From Rhizobium jaguaris (GTDB lineage: Bacteria > Pseudomonadota > Alphaproteobacteria > Rhizobiales > Rhizobiaceae), in NCBI RefSeq assembly GCF_003627755.1, contig NZ_CP032694.1, positions 673,501 through 737,500 on the forward strand: a DNA stretch of 64,000 nucleotides. Reading direction: 5' to 3'. Shown here piece by piece: positions 45,413 through 60,698 of this stretch. The notes under the pieces were generated by a model that had not been told where the DNA came from, did no database searches, and saw only the letters and a list, made by a program, of their open reading frames with translations. The stretch's first letter is position 1. The number at the start of each line of letters is the position of its first letter. The translations under genes and the position numbers were made by a program.

Positions 45413-45567
45413 GATATTCTCCGCGATAGCATTCAAGGTGTCAGCGAGTGGTGCGAAGTCAGAGAAGCTTGCCTATGCTCGATCGCATCGGTCGCGACGC
45501 GAGGCATTAGCATAAAAAAGCTCAAGAACTTCTAACGGTATAACTATCTTATTTTTATGGGAGAAAA

Positions 45568-45587
45568 ATGGTGCCGCTTACGTGAGG
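45568..45587. repeat. att site, tRNA-distal copy
   Basis: AAATGGTGCCGCTTACGTGA is identical to 60620-60639. It is a remnant of the tRNA-Thr 3' end, left at the far border of the island by integration. Confidence 0.85.
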
Positions 45588-47102: not shown

Positions 47103-47182
47103 GCATGTCCGGTCTTTTGGGGGCAACTCCACAACGCAATGAGCATTGTACAAATTTAAGATGCAAAAAAGGTCGACCTCTA

Positions 47183-48850
47183 ATGCTCTCTTCAATAAAA
47201 TTTAAATTTGGTTCTGCCGCAAATCAGCCCGCCCTCGAGATTGCTACGCCCCCTTCCGTGACTATTTTCGTGGGGCCGAATAACTCCGGAAAAAGCCAAT
47301 CACTGCGCGAAATAAGGAATTTTTTCGCCAGCGGACAAAACGTAGGCGGACTTGTGGTTGAAGATGTTGAGTTCTTGCCATTTACGGAAGAGCAGGCATT
47401 GTACGAACTTCAACAAATGAGAGTTGAGCCGACATTTGGTGAAACCGTTTTTCCTGACCACCAGTGGATCAAGGTCCCTCAAGGTCGCATGCAGATCCAC
47501 AAGCCACAGTTCATTAACGCGCTACGGGCACCAAACAACCCACAGATGGGACTGCGGCAGATGTTCGCAACCTATGCTAATGCGTTTCTACTAGCGTTAG
47601 ATGGTCCGTCCAGAATTCAATTGGTTAACCCCCAAGCTCGCGGCGATCTAAAAAATCCGGAAACCGCATTTGCAAGATTGCTCGTCGACGATGAAAGACG
47701 CTCTGCATTGCGCAAACTGGTCTACGATGCGACGGGTCTGCAATTTGTGTTGGACGCGTCGGTGGGCGATCAACTCAATGTTCGGTTCGGGTCGTCTCCC
47801 CCGCCAAATGAGCGTTCTCTTGAGGAGGTCACTCTTGCTTACATGCAGGCCGCGAAGGGCATTGAAAATGTTAGTGACGGCGTAAAGGCGTTTGCGGGCA
47901 TCTTATTGCAGCTTCACGTAGGCCAGCCGAAGGTCATCACTGTCGATGAGCCTGAGGCCTTCCTTCATCCAAGCTTAGCGTTCACCCTTGGAAAGGAACT
48001 TGCAAAAGGTGCCGTTGATGAGCGGAAACACATATACGCCTCCACTCACAGTGCACAGTTTCTGATGGGGGCAATTTCTTCTGGCGCGGAAGTGAATATC
48101 ATCCGTCTCACATATCAAAACGGTGCTGGGACCGCACGGTTGTTGCCGAGCGCGGATTTAAAAACTTTAATGCAAGACCCGTTGCTAAGGTCGGTAGGCG
48201 TGTTGGAAGGTCTGTTCTTCGATTGCGTTCTGGTGGGTGAGGCAAATGCTGACCGGGCCTTCTATCAAGAGATAAATGAACGATTACTCGCGCAAGGTGA
48301 TGCACGCGGAGCGCCACGTACCTTGTTCCTAAACGCAGACAACAAACAGACCATACCTAGAATTGTCGCTCCATTAAGGAAGCTTGGTATTCCGACTGCC
48401 GGTGTCGTGGATATAGACGTGTTGAAGGACGGAGGCTCTGAATGGACGAAGCACCTCAATGCTATCGGCATGCCGGTCGGTGAACTTAACGCATATGCAA
48501 ATAGACGTACCGCAACTCTGAAGGCTCTTCAGGACACGCAGAAAGACTACAAAAAGGAGGGCGGTATTATCTTGCTTACAAACGGCGACCTAGAAATGGC
48601 GCAAAACCTATTGGCTGATCTGGCGCGCTATGGCCTTTTCGTTGTCGCGCGTGGCGAGGTTGAGAACTGGTTGACCGATCTGGACGTTGAGCGTTCAAAG
48701 CAGAAATGGCTTCGCAATATATTTGAGAAAATGGGCAGCGATCCAAACTCTGAAGGATACGTAAAGCCCACAGCCGGCGACGTTTGGGATTTTATCGGGG
48801 ACATATCTTCGTGGATGAAAAACAAAGACCGTAGAGGAATTCCGGTTTAG
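47183..48850 (+). CDS. OLD-family ATP-dependent endonuclease-like protein (AAA ATPase + TOPRIM)
   Basis: 555 residues from the ATG at 47183. An upstream start inside the IS is unlikely. Walker A is GPNNSGKS, followed by the coupled signature (VSDGVKAFAGILLQL), Walker B VITVDEPEAFLHPSL and a switch His in ASTHSAQF. The C-terminal half has a TOPRIM-like E (LVGEANADRAFYQEI) and D-x-D (VVDIDVL). OLD proteins act in anti-phage defence or DNA repair. No UvrD-type partner is nearby, so this is class-1-like. An IS3 element lies 51 bp upstream and may have altered its promoter. GC content is lower than in the flanking chromosome. Confidence 0.75.
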   Translation: MLSSIKFKFGSAANQPALEIATPPSVTIFVGPNNSGKSQSLREIRNFFASGQNVGGLVVEDVEFLPFTEEQALYELQQMRVEPTFGETVFPDHQWIKVPQGRMQIHKPQFINALRAPNNPQMGLRQMFATYANAFLLALDGPSRIQLVNPQARGDLKNPETAFARLLVDDERRSALRKLVYDATGLQFVLDASVGDQLNVRFGSSPPPNERSLEEVTLAYMQAAKGIENVSDGVKAFAGILLQLHVGQPKVITVDEPEAFLHPSLAFTLGKELAKGAVDERKHIYASTHSAQFLMGAISSGAEVNIIRLTYQNGAGTARLLPSADLKTLMQDPLLRSVGVLEGLFFDCVLVGEANADRAFYQEINERLLAQGDARGAPRTLFLNADNKQTIPRIVAPLRKLGIPTAGVVDIDVLKDGGSEWTKHLNAIGMPVGELNAYANRRTATLKALQDTQKDYKKEGGIILLTNGDLEMAQNLLADLARYGLFVVARGEVENWLTDLDVERSKQKWLRNIFEKMGSDPNSEGYVKPTAGDVWDFIGDISSWMKNKDRRGIPV

Positions 48851-49323: not shown

Positions 49324-50383
49324 ATGCCATTTTTTCAAGGCGTACACGTTACAAACTATCGTGGGCTAGCAAGTCTAGAAATCCCCGAATTTCGCGATGT
49401 AAATGTGATTGGCGGTTTCAATGGCGTTGGTAAATCAACGTTATTAGAAGCACTATTCATGTTGGTGGATCAAAATAATCCGACCGTTCTGCTTCGGCCC
49501 TTTATGTGGCGGAACTTGCCCGTTTCGATTGACGAGGGGACGCGCATGATATGGACGCACGGTAACGTCGGTGAGGTCGCGTCAGTAAGCGCTATTACTT
49601 CGATAGGAAAATGCGTGCTGTCGTTTAAGGTCGAGCCACAGCCGCTTTTTCCAGTGTTAGGCAATATGTTCCCTCAAAGCCCAACTACGCTCGCTGGCGT
49701 GGGTGTTACGATGACGTGCACGCTTGATGGCCAAACCCGATCCATAGTGCATTTGAAGGGACTAAGCGCTCAAGAGATGCAGGCGTGGCCTGAGCCTCAA
49801 TCTCAGCCGATATCCATGGGGAGAGCCGTGATGCTGTCGCGCCGAACGATTGATCATCCCACTGAGCTTGCGCAGCGTTATTCAACGGCAGTCGCCAATC
49901 GTAAAAAAACGTGTCCTTCAACTCGTACAAGTTGTAGCGCCGGATGTTACTGAAATTACTTTGCTTCAAATCAGTGGGCAGCCGTCGTTATTCGCTTCTT
50001 TTAATAATAATGATGATATGCTTCTTCCCATTTCCATGCTTGGCGACGGCCTTAGTGCAATACTTAGTGCTGGGTTAGCAATTATTGATTGCCAAGATGG
50101 TGTTGTGTTTTTGGATGAATTTGATGGAGCAATACATTACTCGAAATTGAAGCAAATATGGGCTGAATTAATTAAGCTGGCGAAAGAAATGAATGTGCAG
50201 GTATTTGCTGCAACCCATTCACGTGAAGCTATAAAAGCTATATCCGACGCTTCGGTGATTTCTGCACTTCAAGAACGACTAATATATTTACGAATTGACA
50301 AAGTAGACGATAAAACGAAAGCAACAACTTACTTGCAGTCTGAACTCGAAGACGCTCTTTCCGACAATTGGGAAGTGCGTTGA
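49324..50383 (+). pseudogene. AAA ATPase gene of a defence-like pair, frameshifted at an A7 run
   Basis: Frame 1 (49324-49953) has Walker A GGFNGVGKST and runs to the A7 run at 49903-49909. After one A is removed, the frame continues as NRKKRVLQLVQVVAP. Frame 2, ending at 50383, has the signature-like MLGDGLSAIL, Walker B GVVFLDEFDGAIHYS and ATHSREAI. The corrected protein would be about 350 residues with a complete AAA_15/21-type ATPase. It is followed, with a one-base overlap (TGATG), by a TOPRIM gene, as in PARIS (AriA/AriB) and AbiL. The indel could be real, a slippage site or an assembly error. Confidence 0.8.
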
Positions 50384-50612
50384 TGGCAGAACAAGGTGTG
50401 TATTTTGACACAGCCAAGCGCCCCCAAGACAAGCCGTGCTTGCTAATCGTTGAGGGGATCGATGATGCTCGCTTTTTTGACGCGTTGCTACGTGATCTTA
50501 ATGCCGATCCAACGTAACCGCCCGATTGTGGCCGCCTGTTGGAAATAGCCGCGCTTATTTATGACCCGTCTATAACGACGTCGTTAGCGACGTGTTTTAG
50601 GCGAGGCCTGCG

Positions 50613-50993
50613 ATGCGCGTGGAAATTCTCGGCGATGAACGTCGCCGACGTTGGAGTGATGAGAGCAAACTGGAGATCGTGCTGTCGGTGGGGTTCGATG
50701 GCGCGTCGGTGACTGAGGTAGCGCGCCGGTATTCGGTCACGCGGCAGCAGATTTATACCTGGCGGCGTGAGTTGCGGAAGAAGGGCCTGCTGTTGCCACC
50801 TCCGACCCCAGTGTTTCTGCCGCTGGACATGCCGCCCCCTGGAGACAACGAAGAGGCTCGGACTGTCGATGGCATGCAGGTTTTGCCTGCGATGATGGAG
50901 TTGCAATTGCGCTGCGGACGAAACCTTCGCTTCAGCGGCGATGTTGACGTGGTTGCTCTGAAGCGCCTGATCCGGGCAATCGAGGCGGTATGA
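50613..50993 (+). CDS. tnpA: IS66 accessory protein TnpA
   Basis: 126 residues with an HTH typical of IS66 TnpA: ERRRRWSDESKLEIVLSVGF, then ASVTEVARRYSVTRQQIYTWRREL. It binds DNA and is needed for IS66 transposition together with TnpB and TnpC. Its stop overlaps the tnpB start by four bases (ATGA). Confidence 0.88.
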   Translation: MRVEILGDERRRRWSDESKLEIVLSVGFDGASVTEVARRYSVTRQQIYTWRRELRKKGLLLPPPTPVFLPLDMPPPGDNEEARTVDGMQVLPAMMELQLRCGRNLRFSGDVDVVALKRLIRAIEAV

Positions 50994-51337
50994 TCGGGCC
51001 TGGGACAGGTGTTCGGGTTTACCTTGCCTGCGGTGTCACGGACATGCGCAAGGGGATCGAGGGGCTGGCTGCTCTTGCCCAGGATGTGCTGCGCCAGAAG
51101 CCGACGGGAGGTGCGGTCTTCGCGTTTCGCGGGAGGCGGGGCGACCGTTTGAAGCTTTTGTATTTTGACGGTCAGGGGTTCTGCCTTTATTATAAAATCC
51201 TGCAGAAAGGGCGGTTTCCATGGCCGTCGGCAGTAGATGGGGCAGCCCGGTTGACGTCTGCTCAACTGGCGATGCTCTGGGAAGGGATTGATTGGCGGCG
51301 GCCGGACTGGGGCTCTCCTCCGGCCCGCGTTAGTTGA
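50990..51337 (+). CDS. tnpB: IS66 accessory protein TnpB (IS66 Orf2)
   Basis: 115 residues. It has the diagnostic IS66 Orf2 sequence: VYLACGVTDMRKGIEGLAALAQDVL, FAFRGRRGDRLKLLYFDGQGFCLYYK. Its precise role is unknown, but it is essential in related elements. It overlaps tnpA by four bases and lies about 60 bases before tnpC. Confidence 0.92.
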   Translation: MIGPGTGVRVYLACGVTDMRKGIEGLAALAQDVLRQKPTGGAVFAFRGRRGDRLKLLYFDGQGFCLYYKILQKGRFPWPSAVDGAARLTSAQLAMLWEGIDWRRPDWGSPPARVS

Positions 51338-51399
51338 ATTATCCCACTGAATCTGCGTGTTTTTATGGATGTTGGCTCTGACCTGTGGTAGTCAGGTTC

Positions 51400-53025
51400 A
51401 TGTCGAGCGCGAGCCAAAATCTTCCCGATGATCCGGCCTTCCTGAAGGCAATGATCGCTGCGCTTGAGGCGAAAAACGCGAAGATGTCGGCGACCCTGCA
51501 GGCGCATGACCAGTTGATCCAATCGCTGCGGCTGCGCATCGCCAGGCTGAAGAAACATGGCTTCGGCAAATCGTCGGAAAAAATCGAGCGGGAAATCCAG
51601 CAGTTGGAACTGGCGCTGGAGGACCTGATGATTGCCGCCTCGGAAAGCAGCAGCGAGCCGCTCGCCGACGTCGAGGAAACCGTGCGTGCGGAGTCTGAGG
51701 CAAGCATGCCGGAAAAGACCATGCGCCGCCGTCCGCGCGTGTCGGACAAGGCCGCTCGCGAGCGCAGGGAACTCGATCCTGGCACGCACTGCCCCGATTG
51801 CGGTGGCGAACTGCGGCTTGTCGGTGAAGACGTCAGCGAAATCCTCGACATGATCGCCGCACAGATGAAGGTCATCGAGATTGCTCGGCTGAAGAAGTCC
51901 TGCCGCTGCTGCGAGAAGATGGTGCAGTTGCCCGCGCCCAGCCGTCCGATACCGGGCAGCATGGCGGGCGCTGGACTGCTCGCCTACATCCTGGTCTCGA
52001 AGTTTGACGACCACCTGCCGCTCTATCGCCTGAACGAAATCTTCGCCCGCATGGGCGTTGATATCCCCGACAGCACGCTGGTCGATTGGTGCGGCCGCGC
52101 CATGCGGGTGCTCCTGCCGCTGATCGAGTTGATCGAGGCGGCGATCATGAGCAGCGACCTTCTCCACGCCGACGACACGCCGATCCGGGTTCTGGATCGT
52201 TCTCTGCGCGACAAGGGGCTGGGGAAAGGGGTGAAGAAGGGCCGGCTCTGGACCTATGTCCGGGACCAACGCCCATGGGCGGGCATAGCTCCGCCCGGTG
52301 CGGTCTATTATTTTGCTCCCGACTGGAAGGAAGAGCACGTTCACCGTCACCTCAAGCAGGCGAGCGGCATCCTTCAGGCCGACGGCTACAAAGGCTACGC
52401 GAAGTTGTATGAGGCCGGACCGGACGGGACACGCCGCTTCCAGGAAGCTTCATGTTGGGCGCATTGGCGGCGCGACTTCCATGATATCTGGACCTCGAAC
52501 AAATCCGAGATCGCCCGCGAGGCGCTCGACCGTATCGGCGCGCTTTACGACATCGAGCGCGAGGTTGCAGGCAAGTCTGCCGATATCCGTCTCGCCGCGC
52601 GCCAGAAGCACAGCAAGGCAAAGGTCGAAGCCTTGCGCGTCTGGGCCGAAGCGCAACTGACCCGTATCCCCGGCAAGAGCGATCTGGCTGGCGCTTTCAG
52701 GTATGGCCTGAGCAGGTGGTCCTCATTCTGCCTGTTCCTGGAAGACGGCCGTGTCGCAATCGATAACAATGCCGCAGAACGGGCGTTGCGTCCGATCGGC
52801 GTTGGAAGACGAAACTGGCTCTTCGCGGGCGCTGACACTGGAGCAGAAACCCTGGCGCGGGCCATGACAATTATCGAGACCGCCAAGATGAATGGCCTTG
52901 ATCCTCAGGCCTATCTGGCTGACGTGCTCGACCGCATTCAGGATCACAAGATCAATCGCCTCGCCGAACTGCTCCCATGGAACTGGGTGCCGACGGTGGC
53001 AGTCATCTGCGCCGAGGCCGCCTGA
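51400..53025 (+). CDS. tnpC: IS66 transposase TnpC
   Basis: 541 residues from the ATG at 51400. The N-terminal leucine-zipper-like coil is followed by a zinc-finger region (CPDCGGEL then SCRCCEKM). The DDE domain begins at GMAGAGLLAYIL-like AGAGLLAYILVSKFDDHLPLYR, with LHADDTPIRVL giving the first Asp and VAIDNNAAERALRP the Glu. The IS66_C tail is GAETLARAMTIIETAKMNGLDP. It looks complete. Its stop overlaps the fourth ORF by one base (TGATG). Confidence 0.92.
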   Translation: MSSASQNLPDDPAFLKAMIAALEAKNAKMSATLQAHDQLIQSLRLRIARLKKHGFGKSSEKIEREIQQLELALEDLMIAASESSSEPLADVEETVRAESEASMPEKTMRRRPRVSDKAARERRELDPGTHCPDCGGELRLVGEDVSEILDMIAAQMKVIEIARLKKSCRCCEKMVQLPAPSRPIPGSMAGAGLLAYILVSKFDDHLPLYRLNEIFARMGVDIPDSTLVDWCGRAMRVLLPLIELIEAAIMSSDLLHADDTPIRVLDRSLRDKGLGKGVKKGRLWTYVRDQRPWAGIAPPGAVYYFAPDWKEEHVHRHLKQASGILQADGYKGYAKLYEAGPDGTRRFQEASCWAHWRRDFHDIWTSNKSEIAREALDRIGALYDIEREVAGKSADIRLAARQKHSKAKVEALRVWAEAQLTRIPGKSDLAGAFRYGLSRWSSFCLFLEDGRVAIDNNAAERALRPIGVGRRNWLFAGADTGAETLARAMTIIETAKMNGLDPQAYLADVLDRIQDHKINRLAELLPWNWVPTVAVICAEAA

Positions 53026-53861
53026 TGGCAACGGTCCGCTTCGTCTTCACCATCGACTATGTCGCCGAAATCCTCAATGAGGATGTCGACCTTCTCCGGG
53101 AGATCATCAGCAATGATGACAACCTGACCTATGGCAATATCATCAGCGTCGTGACTGGAGACGACGAGAGTACGTCAGCTTTGACAGACGATGGCGTTGA
53201 CGAACTCAGGCAGATGCTTAGCGACGCGCGTAGGTCTGCGGAAACATGGCAAGAGTTCCTCGATTGCTTCGTCCTCGACGAAAAGGTCGTCGAGCGTGTC
53301 AAGACATATTCCCCACGGTCACAATCGGGCGGTTACGATCCAACGCAAGTTGCGATAGAACACATCGGGGGAGTGGATGCGATAGAAAAGAGCCTCCAAT
53401 CGCTTGTCAAGTCGCGGCCCTATCAGGAGGGACGGATTGTAAAGATTGCAGCGATACGAGACGCGGACGTTAATCCAACGGACGCCACCGGCATGATGCA
53501 TCGTGCGTTTCAATCAGTCGGTTGGCCGCAACCAGCTCCGGGCACTTTCGAAGGTGGCCAGAACATTGAAGTGGGATTGTTTGTCGTTCCGTCCTCCGAC
53601 CAAAGCGGCGACTTGGAACGTCTTTGCTTGGCTACCGTTGCCGATGTTGCCAAAGCGCAATCAGTCACTCAATTCTATGCTCAAATGGATGCTACCTACG
53701 GCCCTTTGGACCGCCCTTATAAACGGCAATGTGCAATTTATCTTGCTTGCACGAATGTGGAAACGAGAGGGCCGGGGCAGGCCTTCAGTATTGGCGTATT
53801 TGACCGACAACATGGCGTGCTCGAACCTCTGAAGCAGTTTCTTACGCTGTTCCTCGGTTAG
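53025..53861 (+). CDS. IS66 fourth ORF fused in frame to the 3' part of the TOPRIM gene
   Basis: The first 104 codons (53025-53336) are IS66 passenger sequence: MATVRFVFTIDYVAEILNED and an acidic region. The frame runs on through the terminal repeat and the target copy, joining the TOPRIM C-terminal fragment from about 53337 to its natural stop at 53861. The fused reading frame is 278 residues. The passenger function is unknown. Whether a stable fusion is made is unknown, but the in-frame joining is exact. Confidence 0.75.
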   Translation: MATVRFVFTIDYVAEILNEDVDLLREIISNDDNLTYGNIISVVTGDDESTSALTDDGVDELRQMLSDARRSAETWQEFLDCFVLDEKVVERVKTYSPRSQSGGYDPTQVAIEHIGGVDAIEKSLQSLVKSRPYQEGRIVKIAAIRDADVNPTDATGMMHRAFQSVGWPQPAPGTFEGGQNIEVGLFVVPSSDQSGDLERLCLATVADVAKAQSVTQFYAQMDATYGPLDRPYKRQCAIYLACTNVETRGPGQAFSIGVFDRQHGVLEPLKQFLTLFLG

Positions 53862-54321: not shown

Positions 54322-54956
54322 ATGTCCAAGATCGTACTGTACGCCCGCGTGTCAACCATAGACCAGACGCTAGACCACCAACGGACACAAGCGGAGCAAG
54401 CAGGCTTCATCATTGACGAGGTGATTGCAGACCACGGTGTATCAGGCGTCAGCACCAGACTTGAAGACCGGCCGGAGGGCAAGCGTCTGTACGACAGGTT
54501 GCGCCGGGGTGACGTGCTGGTTGTTCGCTGGGTCGATAGGCTGGGGCGAAACTACGAGGACGTAACCGACGCCATTCGGCACTTCATGCGACAAGGTGTG
54601 ATCGTCAAAACCGTCATCAACGGGATGACCTTCGACGGGCGACAGCGGACCCGATACAGCAGGCCGTCAGGGACGCGCTGATAGCGTTCATGGCCGCGAC
54701 AGCGCAGGCGCAGGCCGAAGCGACGAAAGCGGCTCAGCGGGCCGGAATAGAGGCAAGGAAGGGCGATATCGAACGCTACCGGGGCAAGAAGCCGAGCTAC
54801 AGCCGGGAGAAGTTCCAGCAGGTGCTTGATATGCTAGCAATCGGCAATGGTGCTTCCGAGATTGCCAAGGCAACCGGATTGACCAGACAGACCGTACTAA
54901 GGATCAAAGGCGATCAGGCCGGGGCTGAGACCGCCTTGGCCAAGTGGGGACTTTGA
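54322..54956 (+). pseudogene. Serine recombinase (resolvase/invertase) with a one-base frameshift
   Basis: The first frame (54322-54681) has the catalytic N-terminal domain: LYARVSTIDQTLDHQ with the nucleophile Ser and conserved Arg, GVSGVSTRLEDRPEGKRLYDRLRRGDVLVV and DRLGRNYEDV. At 54637-54639 a G is missing: adding it joins to the second frame, DGATADPIQQAVRDALIAFM. The second part (ending 54956) has an HTH_7 domain: FQQVLDMLAIGNGASEIAKATGLTRQTVLRIKG. The corrected protein is about 210 residues. GTAC repeats lie upstream. It may be dead or an assembly artefact. Confidence 0.8.
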
Positions 54957-58677: not shown

Positions 58678-58920
58678 ATGGCGAAAACGCTGCACTCAAA
58701 GAGGCATGAAGTACTGGTAGCGGCGATTGCAGAACAACGCCGTGCTAAAGGCTTGTCTCAAGCACAGGTCGCCAAGTTGCTGGGACGCCATCAACCGTTC
58801 ATCGCTAATATCGAAAGCGGTGAACGCCGGGTCGATTTGCTAGAACTGATAACGATAGCGAATATCATTGAACTTGATGTTCATGCCCTGCTTGACCGGT
58901 TGCAGCAGGTTTCAGAGTGA
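58678..58920 (+). CDS. XRE-family transcriptional regulator
   Basis: 80 residues from the ATG at 58678. An in-frame TTG at 58657 with its own purine-rich context is an alternative. The HTH_3 domain covers nearly the whole protein: LVAAIAEQRRAKGLSQAQVAKLLGRHQPFIANIESGERRVDLLELITIANII. It overlaps the integrase gene by 56 bases tail to tail. Its likely target is the palindrome at 58630-58648. It may control the island's integrase or excision genes. Confidence 0.85.
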   Translation: MAKTLHSKRHEVLVAAIAEQRRAKGLSQAQVAKLLGRHQPFIANIESGERRVDLLELITIANIIELDVHALLDRLQQVSE

Positions 58921-60556
58921 AGTCGAGCGTCTGTATTGCGTCGTCAAGCACCTGTAGGGTGTAGCCCCCGAAGTAGTTTTGGTAGGTAACGCCTTGGGGG
59001 ATGTGGCCTACGATGGCGCTGACAAGTGGATCGTTGGGCTTTGCGTTGCCAAGCTGCGTAATAACGGTATGGCGCAGACTGTGGAACACGAGGAACTCGG
59101 ATTTCAGATTGAGCTTCGGTAGCAAACTTTCGTTAAACCAGCGTCCAAGGTTACGGCCTCGGCCGTGCTCGACAGAGTTCGGTAGCTCCTGAAATAATTT
59201 CTGTTTTCCCTGCCTGCGCAACGCCTCGACATGATCCAATAGACCAAGCCTGATGAGTTCGCGATGTATTGGAACCCTGCGCTTTGAAGCCTCTGTCTTT
59301 ACCTTTTTGTCGTCCTCGTTGTTGATGTCAAAAAACCAGATACCGTCCTGTTGCCGAATGTCTGCAAGATCAAGCTGTGCAATCTCATTGAGCCGTGCAC
59401 CCGTATAGATGCCGATAAGCGGTCCCCATTTTTGGTATGGTTTGCGTGCATATATCAGGCCGCTGTCCACGACGGCGTTCAGAATGGTGCGTATTTGATC
59501 TGATGTGAAGGGTAAACGTTTTTTCTCCGCGCGCTGCCGGTTCCGTTTGATCTGAACGCCTGCAAACAGGTTCCGCTCTACGTACCCGTGATGCTGGGCG
59601 TATCCGAAGAAATCGTTATAGGTCTGTAAATACTTGTTGATTGAGGGAACAGACAGGCGGGGTAAGTTAGCCATCTTCAGCACTTCGGCTAGAGACTTGC
59701 CCCTGGTCTCCTGTTTTTTATGTCGGTGCTTGGGCAGCGCAACCAAGGTGTCTTTAACGGTTGTCACGTCCTGCGGGGTCAGCGAAGCAATATCCCGGTT
59801 TCTGCCGAACAATTCCGTAAGCAGTCCTAGATATTCCTCTTTGCCCATAACCGTAGTCTTAACCCAGTTTTCCCCTAGTTTCCGTTCCATGATGAAACGT
59901 TTGGCTAATTCCTCAATGGTGATACTCAGTACCTTGGGCTGTACTAAAGGCGCAGGCGACGGTGTGGGGATTGCACTCGCGGCAGGTGTCGTAGGAGAAG
60001 CCAGAGTGCTTAGGTCGAACTGTTCGTAGGAAGCGTCATGGTCTAGGACCGCTTTCAGAAAGCTACGGACGGCCAGTTTGAAATCCTTTTTCAGCCAGCC
60101 GTATTGTTTGTCCGCATCAGAGAATGGCACGCGGTACTGCGTCATGAATTTTGCAAGCAGGTCTTGGTAGCTTGTGCCGAATGAGAGCGGGCTATCTGTT
60201 TCAATTTCTTGCTGGGTTGCCTCAAGCCGAAGCTCGTAATCCCGTCGGGTCTTTTCGGTGAGACGGCCTTGGCTATCTATCTCGTCCTTAACCGTGTCGA
60301 GAAGTTCGCGGAAATGCTGTTTCAGCAAGCCGTGCAATTCATCGTATCGCATTCCGTATGCAATTCCCTGCTCATTCAACTGTTCGCCTATCTGGATCAA
60401 GGATCGCGACAAGCGCAATGCTTTTCGTGGGTCGCGTGTCTGTAGCGAAATCTTGATCGTCTCGGCTTTTTGGCGTGGGTGTAACTGCTTCGGCATTGGC
60501 CAGCGGAAGTAGAAGACGCCATGCCGAGACTTGAGAAGATAAGAGGGGATGTACAA
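58865..60556 (-). CDS. Tyrosine site-specific integrase of the island
   Basis: 563 residues. The N-terminal part (RHGVFYFRWPMPKQLHPRQ) is of the DUF6538 type found on many phage-like integrases. The SAM-like core-binding domain and the catalytic domain follow. Catalytic residues: Arg in YTGARLNEIAQLD, HxxR in FHSLRHTVITQLG and the nucleophile Tyr in TYQNYFGGYT. It begins 66 bases from the tRNA-Thr 3' end and reads away from it, typical for an integrase using that tRNA as att site. It looks intact. Confidence 0.92.
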   Translation of the reverse strand: MYIPSYLLKSRHGVFYFRWPMPKQLHPRQKAETIKISLQTRDPRKALRLSRSLIQIGEQLNEQGIAYGMRYDELHGLLKQHFRELLDTVKDEIDSQGRLTEKTRRDYELRLEATQQEIETDSPLSFGTSYQDLLAKFMTQYRVPFSDADKQYGWLKKDFKLAVRSFLKAVLDHDASYEQFDLSTLASPTTPAASAIPTPSPAPLVQPKVLSITIEELAKRFIMERKLGENWVKTTVMGKEEYLGLLTELFGRNRDIASLTPQDVTTVKDTLVALPKHRHKKQETRGKSLAEVLKMANLPRLSVPSINKYLQTYNDFFGYAQHHGYVERNLFAGVQIKRNRQRAEKKRLPFTSDQIRTILNAVVDSGLIYARKPYQKWGPLIGIYTGARLNEIAQLDLADIRQQDGIWFFDINNEDDKKVKTEASKRRVPIHRELIRLGLLDHVEALRRQGKQKLFQELPNSVEHGRGRNLGRWFNESLLPKLNLKSEFLVFHSLRHTVITQLGNAKPNDPLVSAIVGHIPQGVTYQNYFGGYTLQVLDDAIQTLDFTLKPAATGQAGHEHQVQ

Positions 60557-60619: not shown

Positions 60620-60639
60620 AAATGGTGCCGCTTACGTGA
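60620..60639. repeat. att site at the tRNA-Thr 3' end
   Basis: AAATGGTGCCGCTTACGTGA includes the CCA end and acceptor stem of tRNA-Thr (minus strand). It is identical to 45568-45587. Integration re-formed the tRNA's 3' end here. Confidence 0.85.
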
Positions 60640-60698
60640 CTCGAACACGTGACCCCATCATTACGAATGATGTGCTCTACCGACTGAGCTAAAGCGGC
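60623..60698 (-). tRNA. tRNA-Thr (anticodon CGT)
   Basis: Read on the minus strand, the acceptor stem GCCGCTT pairs with AAGCGGC followed by ACCA. The anticodon stem CATCA/TGATG encloses TTCGTAA with anticodon CGT. The T-loop (TTCGAGT) and D-loop (GCTCAGTCGGTAGAGC) are present. It is 76 bases long with CCA encoded. The island is integrated at its 3' end without damage. Confidence 0.95.

What the first reader, a model, noticed from the sequence alone, without database searches (positions are those of the whole stretch)
49324..53861. PARIS/AbiL-like ATPase-TOPRIM pair, both genes disabled
A complete two-gene module (AAA ATPase, then a TOPRIM gene overlapping it by one base) can be rebuilt on paper. 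The ATPase has one extra A in an A7 run. The TOPRIM gene is split by an IS66 with an 8-bp duplication, leaving an exact 215-residue frame when removed. This resembles PARIS (AriA/AriB) but with a DUF3226-like effector, so it may be a distinct subtype. Loss of both parts fits a costly abortive system being shed.
Basis: partly seen in the sequence, partly recalled or inferred. Interest (0 to 1): 0.8.

Follow-up and report, generated by a model that had tools for sequence, protein, structure and literature searches.

The report
Disabled ATPase–nuclease phage-defence gene pair
In a Rhizobium-like genome, a two-gene module that looks like a phage-defence switch (an ATPase sensor plus a nuclease) is broken in both genes; it belongs to a catalogued but little-studied candidate defence family, so it is mainly a new broken member of a known kind.

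Summary
At 49324-50383 lies an AAA ATPase gene split over two frames near an A7 run; its stop overlaps by one base the start of a TOPRIM gene cut by a 2823-bp IS66 (50514-53336) with an 8-bp duplication; an identical IS66 copy lies on contig C3. The effector pieces keep the TOPRIM residues and the tail matches Pfam DUF3226 above cut-off. The ATPase scores best with PADLOC PDC-M38A, then AbiLi, then AriA. The AriB model finds nothing in this genome; AbiLii finds only another locus. So it is neither PARIS nor strict AbiL but a PDC-M38 pair, a candidate system PADLOC already lists. In the sampled genomes 16 of 16 DUF3226 loci over the cut-off have the ATPase directly upstream. An intact homologue models confidently (pLDDT 95.8), with OLD-type TOPRIM domains among its nearest solved folds. 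The module is cargo of a 15-kb tRNA-Thr island whose site is empty in two relatives. Most likely an abortive-infection pair whose effector was destroyed by a recent IS hop; the ATPase break could still be an assembly error. Defence by this family was not tested here, and my library searches found no paper on it.

The parts
49324..49953 (+). AAA ATPase gene, N-terminal open frame (Walker A, GGFNGVGKST) up to its premature stop
   Evidence: AAA_15 3.1e-7 (30.8 bits, just under its cut-off 32.1); PDC-M38A 1.3e-11, AbiLi 2.3e-11
49903..49909 (+). A7 run inside the stretch where the reading frame changes
49913..50383 (+). AAA ATPase gene, C-terminal part (Walker B FLDEFDG, ATHS), ends in TGA
   Evidence: scanned as 49850-50380: AAA_21 2.8e-8, over cut-off; PDC-M38A 5.4e-30, AbiLi 1.7e-25, AriA 1.3e-11; alignment A1
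50383..50513 (+). TOPRIM/DUF3226 effector, head with the TOPRIM Glu (LLIVEG)
   Evidence: DUF3226 0.028 and PDC-M38B 0.0072 on 44 residues, both weak
50506..50513 (.). 8-bp target duplication, left copy (GATCCAAC)
50514..53336 (+). IS66-family insertion sequence, 2823 bp
   Evidence: identical copy on C3
50613..50993 (+). IS66 first ORF (HTH_Tnp_1)
50990..51337 (+). IS66 TnpB
   Evidence: TnpB_IS66 2.2e-37
51385..53025 (+). IS66 DDE transposase
   Evidence: DDE_Tnp_IS66 2.7e-96
53025..53861 (+). 278-codon hybrid frame: ORF at the right end of IS66 running in frame into the TOPRIM tail
   Evidence: no Pfam match at E <= 0.01 for the IS part
53337..53344 (.). 8-bp target duplication, right copy
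53337..53861 (+). TOPRIM/DUF3226 effector, tail with DxD and the family's P, G, E, K, L, G positions
   Evidence: DUF3226 6.2e-12, 46.2 bits against cut-off 27; PDC-M38B 6.3e-5; motif survey
45566..45585 (.). 20-bp left att repeat of the island
60620..60639 (.). 20-bp right att repeat, overlapping the 3' end of tRNA-Thr
58865..60556 (-). tyrosine integrase of the island
   Evidence: Phage_integrase 4.3e-9
60623..60698 (-). tRNA-Thr(CGT), integration site
47105..48850 (+). open OLD-like single-gene ATPase-TOPRIM protein in the same island
   Evidence: AAA_21 1.3e-10; OLD-like_TOPRIM 2.1e-4, 22.2 bits against cut-off 23.2; PADLOC Old 1.9e-16

Best explanation
A disabled member of the PDC-M38 type of two-gene candidate defence: an OLD/AbiL-like AAA ATPase (sensor and restrainer) made together with a DUF3226 TOPRIM nuclease (effector), carried on a 15-kb integrative island at tRNA-Thr(CGT) in a Rhizobium-like chromosome. 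In intact relatives the ATPase most likely holds the nuclease inactive until a phage signal frees it, and the nuclease then cuts nucleic acid (tRNA or DNA) and stops growth; this is inferred from PARIS, AbiL and AAA/TOPRIM toxin-antitoxin pairs. Here an IS66 hop cut the nuclease gene between its Glu motif and its DxD, and the ATPase frame is broken too. Shown: gene identity, gene order in relatives, modelled TOPRIM-like fold of a homologue, the IS insertion, the frame break in this assembly, the island. Inferred: defence role, restraint by the ATPase, substrate, and that the nuclease was lost first (an effector without its restrainer should be harmful, although a break in the upstream gene could also silence it).
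Against: No direct evidence that any DUF3226 pair defends against phage: 0 papers for DUF3226 or PDC-M38 in the library, and PADLOC lists it only as a candidate. The window effector is divergent (17% to the first reference) and its PDC-M38B match is weak (6.3e-5). Foldseek alone gave no match at E <= 0.001, and in the second look unrelated folds (Piwi 7.2, gephyrin 7.1) stand close below the OLD group and above the PARIS rows. One intact ATPase relative, L050, scores best with AbiLi, not M38A. A Klebsiella plasmid has IS1 in the ATPase and a DUF3226 gene annotated whole, which sits badly with a strictly lethal free effector unless the insertion silences it.
Confidence: 0.75

Rival explanations
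1. It is PARIS (AriA/AriB) with an unusual effector.
Against: The AriB model finds 0 matches in the own genome at E <= 1 and none on the pieces. On the C part PDC-M38A and AbiLi are ahead of AriA by about 18 and 14 orders of magnitude in E-value. OLD C-terminal domains rank above the PARIS rows in fold.
Confidence: 0.05
2. It is an AbiL (AbiLi/AbiLii) system.
For: AbiLi is the second best system for the ATPase C part (1.7e-25) and the best for relative L050 (9.8e-65).
Against: The AbiLii model does not match this effector at E <= 1; in the own genome it matches only another place, on C3, beside another ATPase-like frame.
Confidence: 0.12
3. The ATPase frame break is an assembly error at a homopolymer and only the IS66 insertion is real.
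For: Homopolymer runs are common error sites in long-read assemblies (recalled). The island also has a resolvase split over two frames (54322-54681 and 54690-54956).
Against: 100 A7 runs of the genome fit the search pattern; of the first 30, 7 lie in frames open through the run, 1 looks like a broken gene and 22 show neither, so such breaks are not general. This does not exclude a single error.
Confidence: 0.25
4. Not phage defence but a plasmid- or island-maintenance pair of the toxin-antitoxin kind.
For: Relatives of the ATPase sit on plasmids, some of about 4 kb (154 records, 138 of them Klebsiella), where addiction modules are common (recalled); AAA proteins are paired with TOPRIM toxins in PMC10440598.
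Against: Patchy distribution (5 of 397 genomes of the order and 15 of 398 of the phylum sample, own included) and an island shared with an OLD-like gene fit defence; the two roles are not exclusive.
Confidence: 0.2

Closest known systems
PDC-M38 (PADLOC-DB candidate phage-defence system, M38A ATPase + M38B)
   Same: Same two genes in the same order; best-scoring ATPase model; effector in the family that M38B models match
   Different: Window copy is interrupted in both genes and its effector is divergent (M38B 6.3e-5)
AbiL (AbiLi ATPase + AbiLii, RloB-type TOPRIM)
   Same: Two-gene ATPase-TOPRIM layout; AbiLi is the second best system for the ATPase
   Different: Effector is DUF3226; the AbiLii model matches a different locus of this genome
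PARIS (AriA + AriB)
   Same: Split ATPase and TOPRIM genes; weak profile and fold relation
   Different: AriB model absent; ATPase closer to M38A and AbiLi
OLD family nucleases (class 1 OLD, Gabija GajA, retron Eco2)
   Different: There ATPase and TOPRIM are one protein; here two genes

Membership tests
PDC-M38 (kinship) | M38A-type ATPase gene | tested here: met
   best model on the C part (5.4e-30) and on the N part (1.3e-11), AbiLi close behind on the N part (2.3e-11)
PDC-M38 (kinship) | adjacent M38B / DUF3226 effector gene | tested here: met
   DUF3226 46.2 bits against cut-off 27; PDC-M38B only 6.3e-5; one-base overlap
working PDC-M38 system (function) | both genes open | tested here: not met
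   frame break in the ATPase, IS66 in the effector; lowers function, not kinship
working PDC-M38 system (function) | phage-defence activity | not testable with these tools
   needs experiments
PARIS | AriB effector | tested here: not met
   PDLC02983 AriB: 0 matches in own genome at E <= 1; none on the pieces
PARIS | AriA ATPase | tested here: inconclusive
   AriA 1.3e-11 on the C part, far behind M38A and AbiLi
AbiL | AbiLi ATPase | tested here: inconclusive
   AbiLi 1.7e-25 against M38A 5.4e-30 on the C part
AbiL | AbiLii (RloB-type) effector | tested here: not met
   no match on the pieces at E <= 1; in this genome only C3:403900-404574 matches
TOPRIM nuclease fold | Glu and DxD on a TOPRIM-like core | tested here: met
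   E in 63 of 64 rows (window tail lacks that region), D 63 and D 60 of 64; fold neighbours; in the window E lies in the head piece, DxD in the tail piece. Nuclease activity not testable
IS66 | TnpB + DDE transposase, terminal repeats, 8-bp duplication | tested here: met

The most novel reading that the evidence does not exclude
DUF3226 pairs are a separate, untested class of split OLD-type immunity, present in Pseudomonadota and beyond (an M. jannaschii protein is over the family cut-off) and on plasmids of clinical Klebsiella, in which the nuclease is an OLD-like TOPRIM rather than AriB or RloB. Natural copies with one half disabled, such as this one, would then record which half can be lost first.
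Probability: 0.35. Interest if true: 0.5.

Novelty: new member of a known kind. Interest (0 to 1): 0.3.

Why it matters
My library searches found no paper naming DUF3226 or PDC-M38, although the pair recurs on plasmids and in genomes. A confident model with OLD TOPRIM domains among its nearest folds, plus conserved gene order, makes the family directly testable. The window copy itself is a relic and mainly shows how such a module decays.

Tried and rejected
Protein search with the TOPRIM tail found only the window's own protein (1 of 44 candidates), and with the ATPase N part none of 364 candidates: close relatives are scarce or share no words. Against plasmids: no match for the ATPase DNA or the tail, 154 records for the ATPase C part, 4 of them over 80% of the query, 6 records for the L024 effector. 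Against phages: no relative of the Plesiomonas effector at 1e-5; other effectors were not tried there. Searching related genomes with PDC-M38A is unspecific: 92 of 150 genomes and 12 of 14 controls ring; of the listed matches only G097 covers the whole model, nearly all others being short AAA stretches, so DUF3226 was used instead. Five loci under the DUF3226 cut-off were left out of the 16 of 16 count: L046 is a pair by both profiles, L045 and L049 have a weak ATPase match only, L028 is one 617-residue frame, L044 shows neither. Genome contigs: 1 relative, L050, whose contig ends just behind the ATPase. Solved-structure search by sequence gave no TOPRIM match for the effector family and only distant ATPases for L024. 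NCBIfam: no family for the effectors. Papers: DUF3226 0, PDC-M38 0; from the listings three papers were opened, none in whole. A programmed frameshift as the cause of the ATPase break was not tested. Whether Foldseek missed other TOPRIM folds is open.
Full report
What is there. The ATPase gene runs from 49324 to 50383 and its stop overlaps by one base the start of the next gene at 50383. At an A7 run, 49903-49909, the first frame has been open 209 codons and closes 15 codons later, while the frame used by the rest of the gene has been open for only 24 codons and goes on for 158. The N part carries a Walker A motif; PDC-M38A (1.3e-11) and AbiLi (2.3e-11) lead its PADLOC list, and its best Pfam match, AAA_15, is just under cut-off. 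The C part carries Walker B and an ATHS motif and matches AAA_21 (2.8e-8), PDC-M38A (5.4e-30), AbiLi (1.7e-25) and AriA (1.3e-11). Motif names are from general knowledge.

The effector gene is cut after 131 bases by an IS66 of 2823 bp (50514-53336) flanked by GATCCAAC; an identical copy on contig C3 is flanked by its own 8-bp repeat. The codon phase on both sides of the IS agrees. The head (LLIVEG) holds the TOPRIM glutamate and the tail holds the DxD. The tail matches Pfam DUF3226 with 46.2 bits against a cut-off of 27; it is the only DUF3226 match in the genome. The IS carries at its right end a frame that reads through the repeat into the tail (53025-53861), so a hybrid protein without the glutamate motif could be made.

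Where it lies. A 20-bp repeat at 45566-45585 and 60620-60639, the second overlapping the 3' end of tRNA-Thr(CGT), and a tyrosine integrase at 58865-60556 mark a 15-kb integrative island. In relative G036 (L054) the left flank runs straight into the right flank with an 18-bp overlap, and G024 (L056) shows the same junction: the site is empty there. The other relatives compared show no such clear junction. The island also carries an open OLD-like single-gene ATPase-TOPRIM protein (47105-48850), two pairs of transposase genes of the IS3 kind, an SNase-type protein and a resolvase split over two frames.

Relatives. DUF3226 is rare: 5 of 397 genomes of the order sample and 15 of 398 of the phylum sample have a match, own genome included in both; 4 and 12 are over the cut-off. 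The matching genomes other than the own are of other families. Leaving out the own locus, 16 loci are over the cut-off, and in all 16 an ATPase of this type lies directly upstream on the same strand; three of those 16 ATPases were part of the profile. The annotated plasmid records show the same order in Plesiomonas, Acinetobacter and one Klebsiella record; a second Klebsiella record has a 211-residue 'ATP/GTP phosphatase' followed by a hypothetical protein that I did not test. Of the relatives put to PADLOC, 3 of 4 ATPases score best with PDC-M38A and one, L050, with AbiLi; 5 of 5 effectors score best with PDC-M38B. In the wider alignment (63 proteins chosen from the 120 listed of 658 hits, plus the window tail) 64 of 64 match an M38B model and 10 of 64 weakly touch AriB.

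Membership. PARIS fails on the effector. AbiL fails on the effector; the genome has a separate AbiLii match on C3, an open 220-residue frame behind an open 430-residue frame that looks like an ATPase by eye (L109). PDC-M38 fits both genes, though the effector is divergent. Whether PDC-M38 defends against phage is not shown by anything I read: no paper in the library holds the words DUF3226 or PDC-M38.

Mechanism. From PARIS (an AriA hexamer sequesters the TOPRIM tRNase AriB and frees it on a phage trigger; PMC12409363, introduction and passages), from AbiL and AAA/TOPRIM_OLD pairs described as abortive or toxin-antitoxin pairs (PMC10440598, part 1 of section 11 and passages) and from the OLD review (PMC10568477, abstract and passages), I infer a sensor-restrainer ATPase and a nuclease effector. 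If so, loss of the nuclease before the ATPase is the safe order. G097 fits (open ATPase, effector frame of 132 residues whose DUF3226 match skips model positions 39-123), while the Klebsiella record with IS1 in the ATPase does not fit simply. The order of the two lesions in the window is not shown. Selection against cost is possible, but nothing here tells it from chance decay.

Caveats. The ATPase break could be an assembly error: of the first 30 of 100 A7 runs that fit the pattern, 7 lie in open frames, 1 looks broken and 22 show neither, which argues against a general problem but does not exclude a single error.

Noticed in passing
window 47105-48850: Open OLD-like ATPase-TOPRIM gene beside the disabled pair; 4 of 297 genomes of the order sample, own included, match at 1e-20, the best other one 50% identical (L098) and aligned from residue 27 on.
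   Followed up: partly
L109 (around G000:C3:403900-404574): An AbiLii match on another contig of the same genome: open 220-residue frame behind an open 430-residue ATPase-like frame; the ATPase was judged by eye only.
   Followed up: partly
window 53025-53861: A frame inside the right end of IS66 continues through the terminal repeat into the TOPRIM tail.
   Followed up: partly
L095 (G002:C2:24500-34500): A relative has a second 49-base copy of the tRNA-Thr end about 8.5 kb from the first, with a 425-residue integrase-like frame (by eye) between: the tRNA looks like an integration hotspot.
   Followed up: partly
L032: In a small Klebsiella plasmid the ATPase of such a pair is interrupted by IS1 while the DUF3226 gene is annotated whole.
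   Followed up: no
L004: G097 has an open ATPase gene but a DUF3226 frame of 132 residues whose match skips the middle of the domain.
   Followed up: no
window 54322-54956: Resolvase gene split over two reading frames.
   Followed up: no
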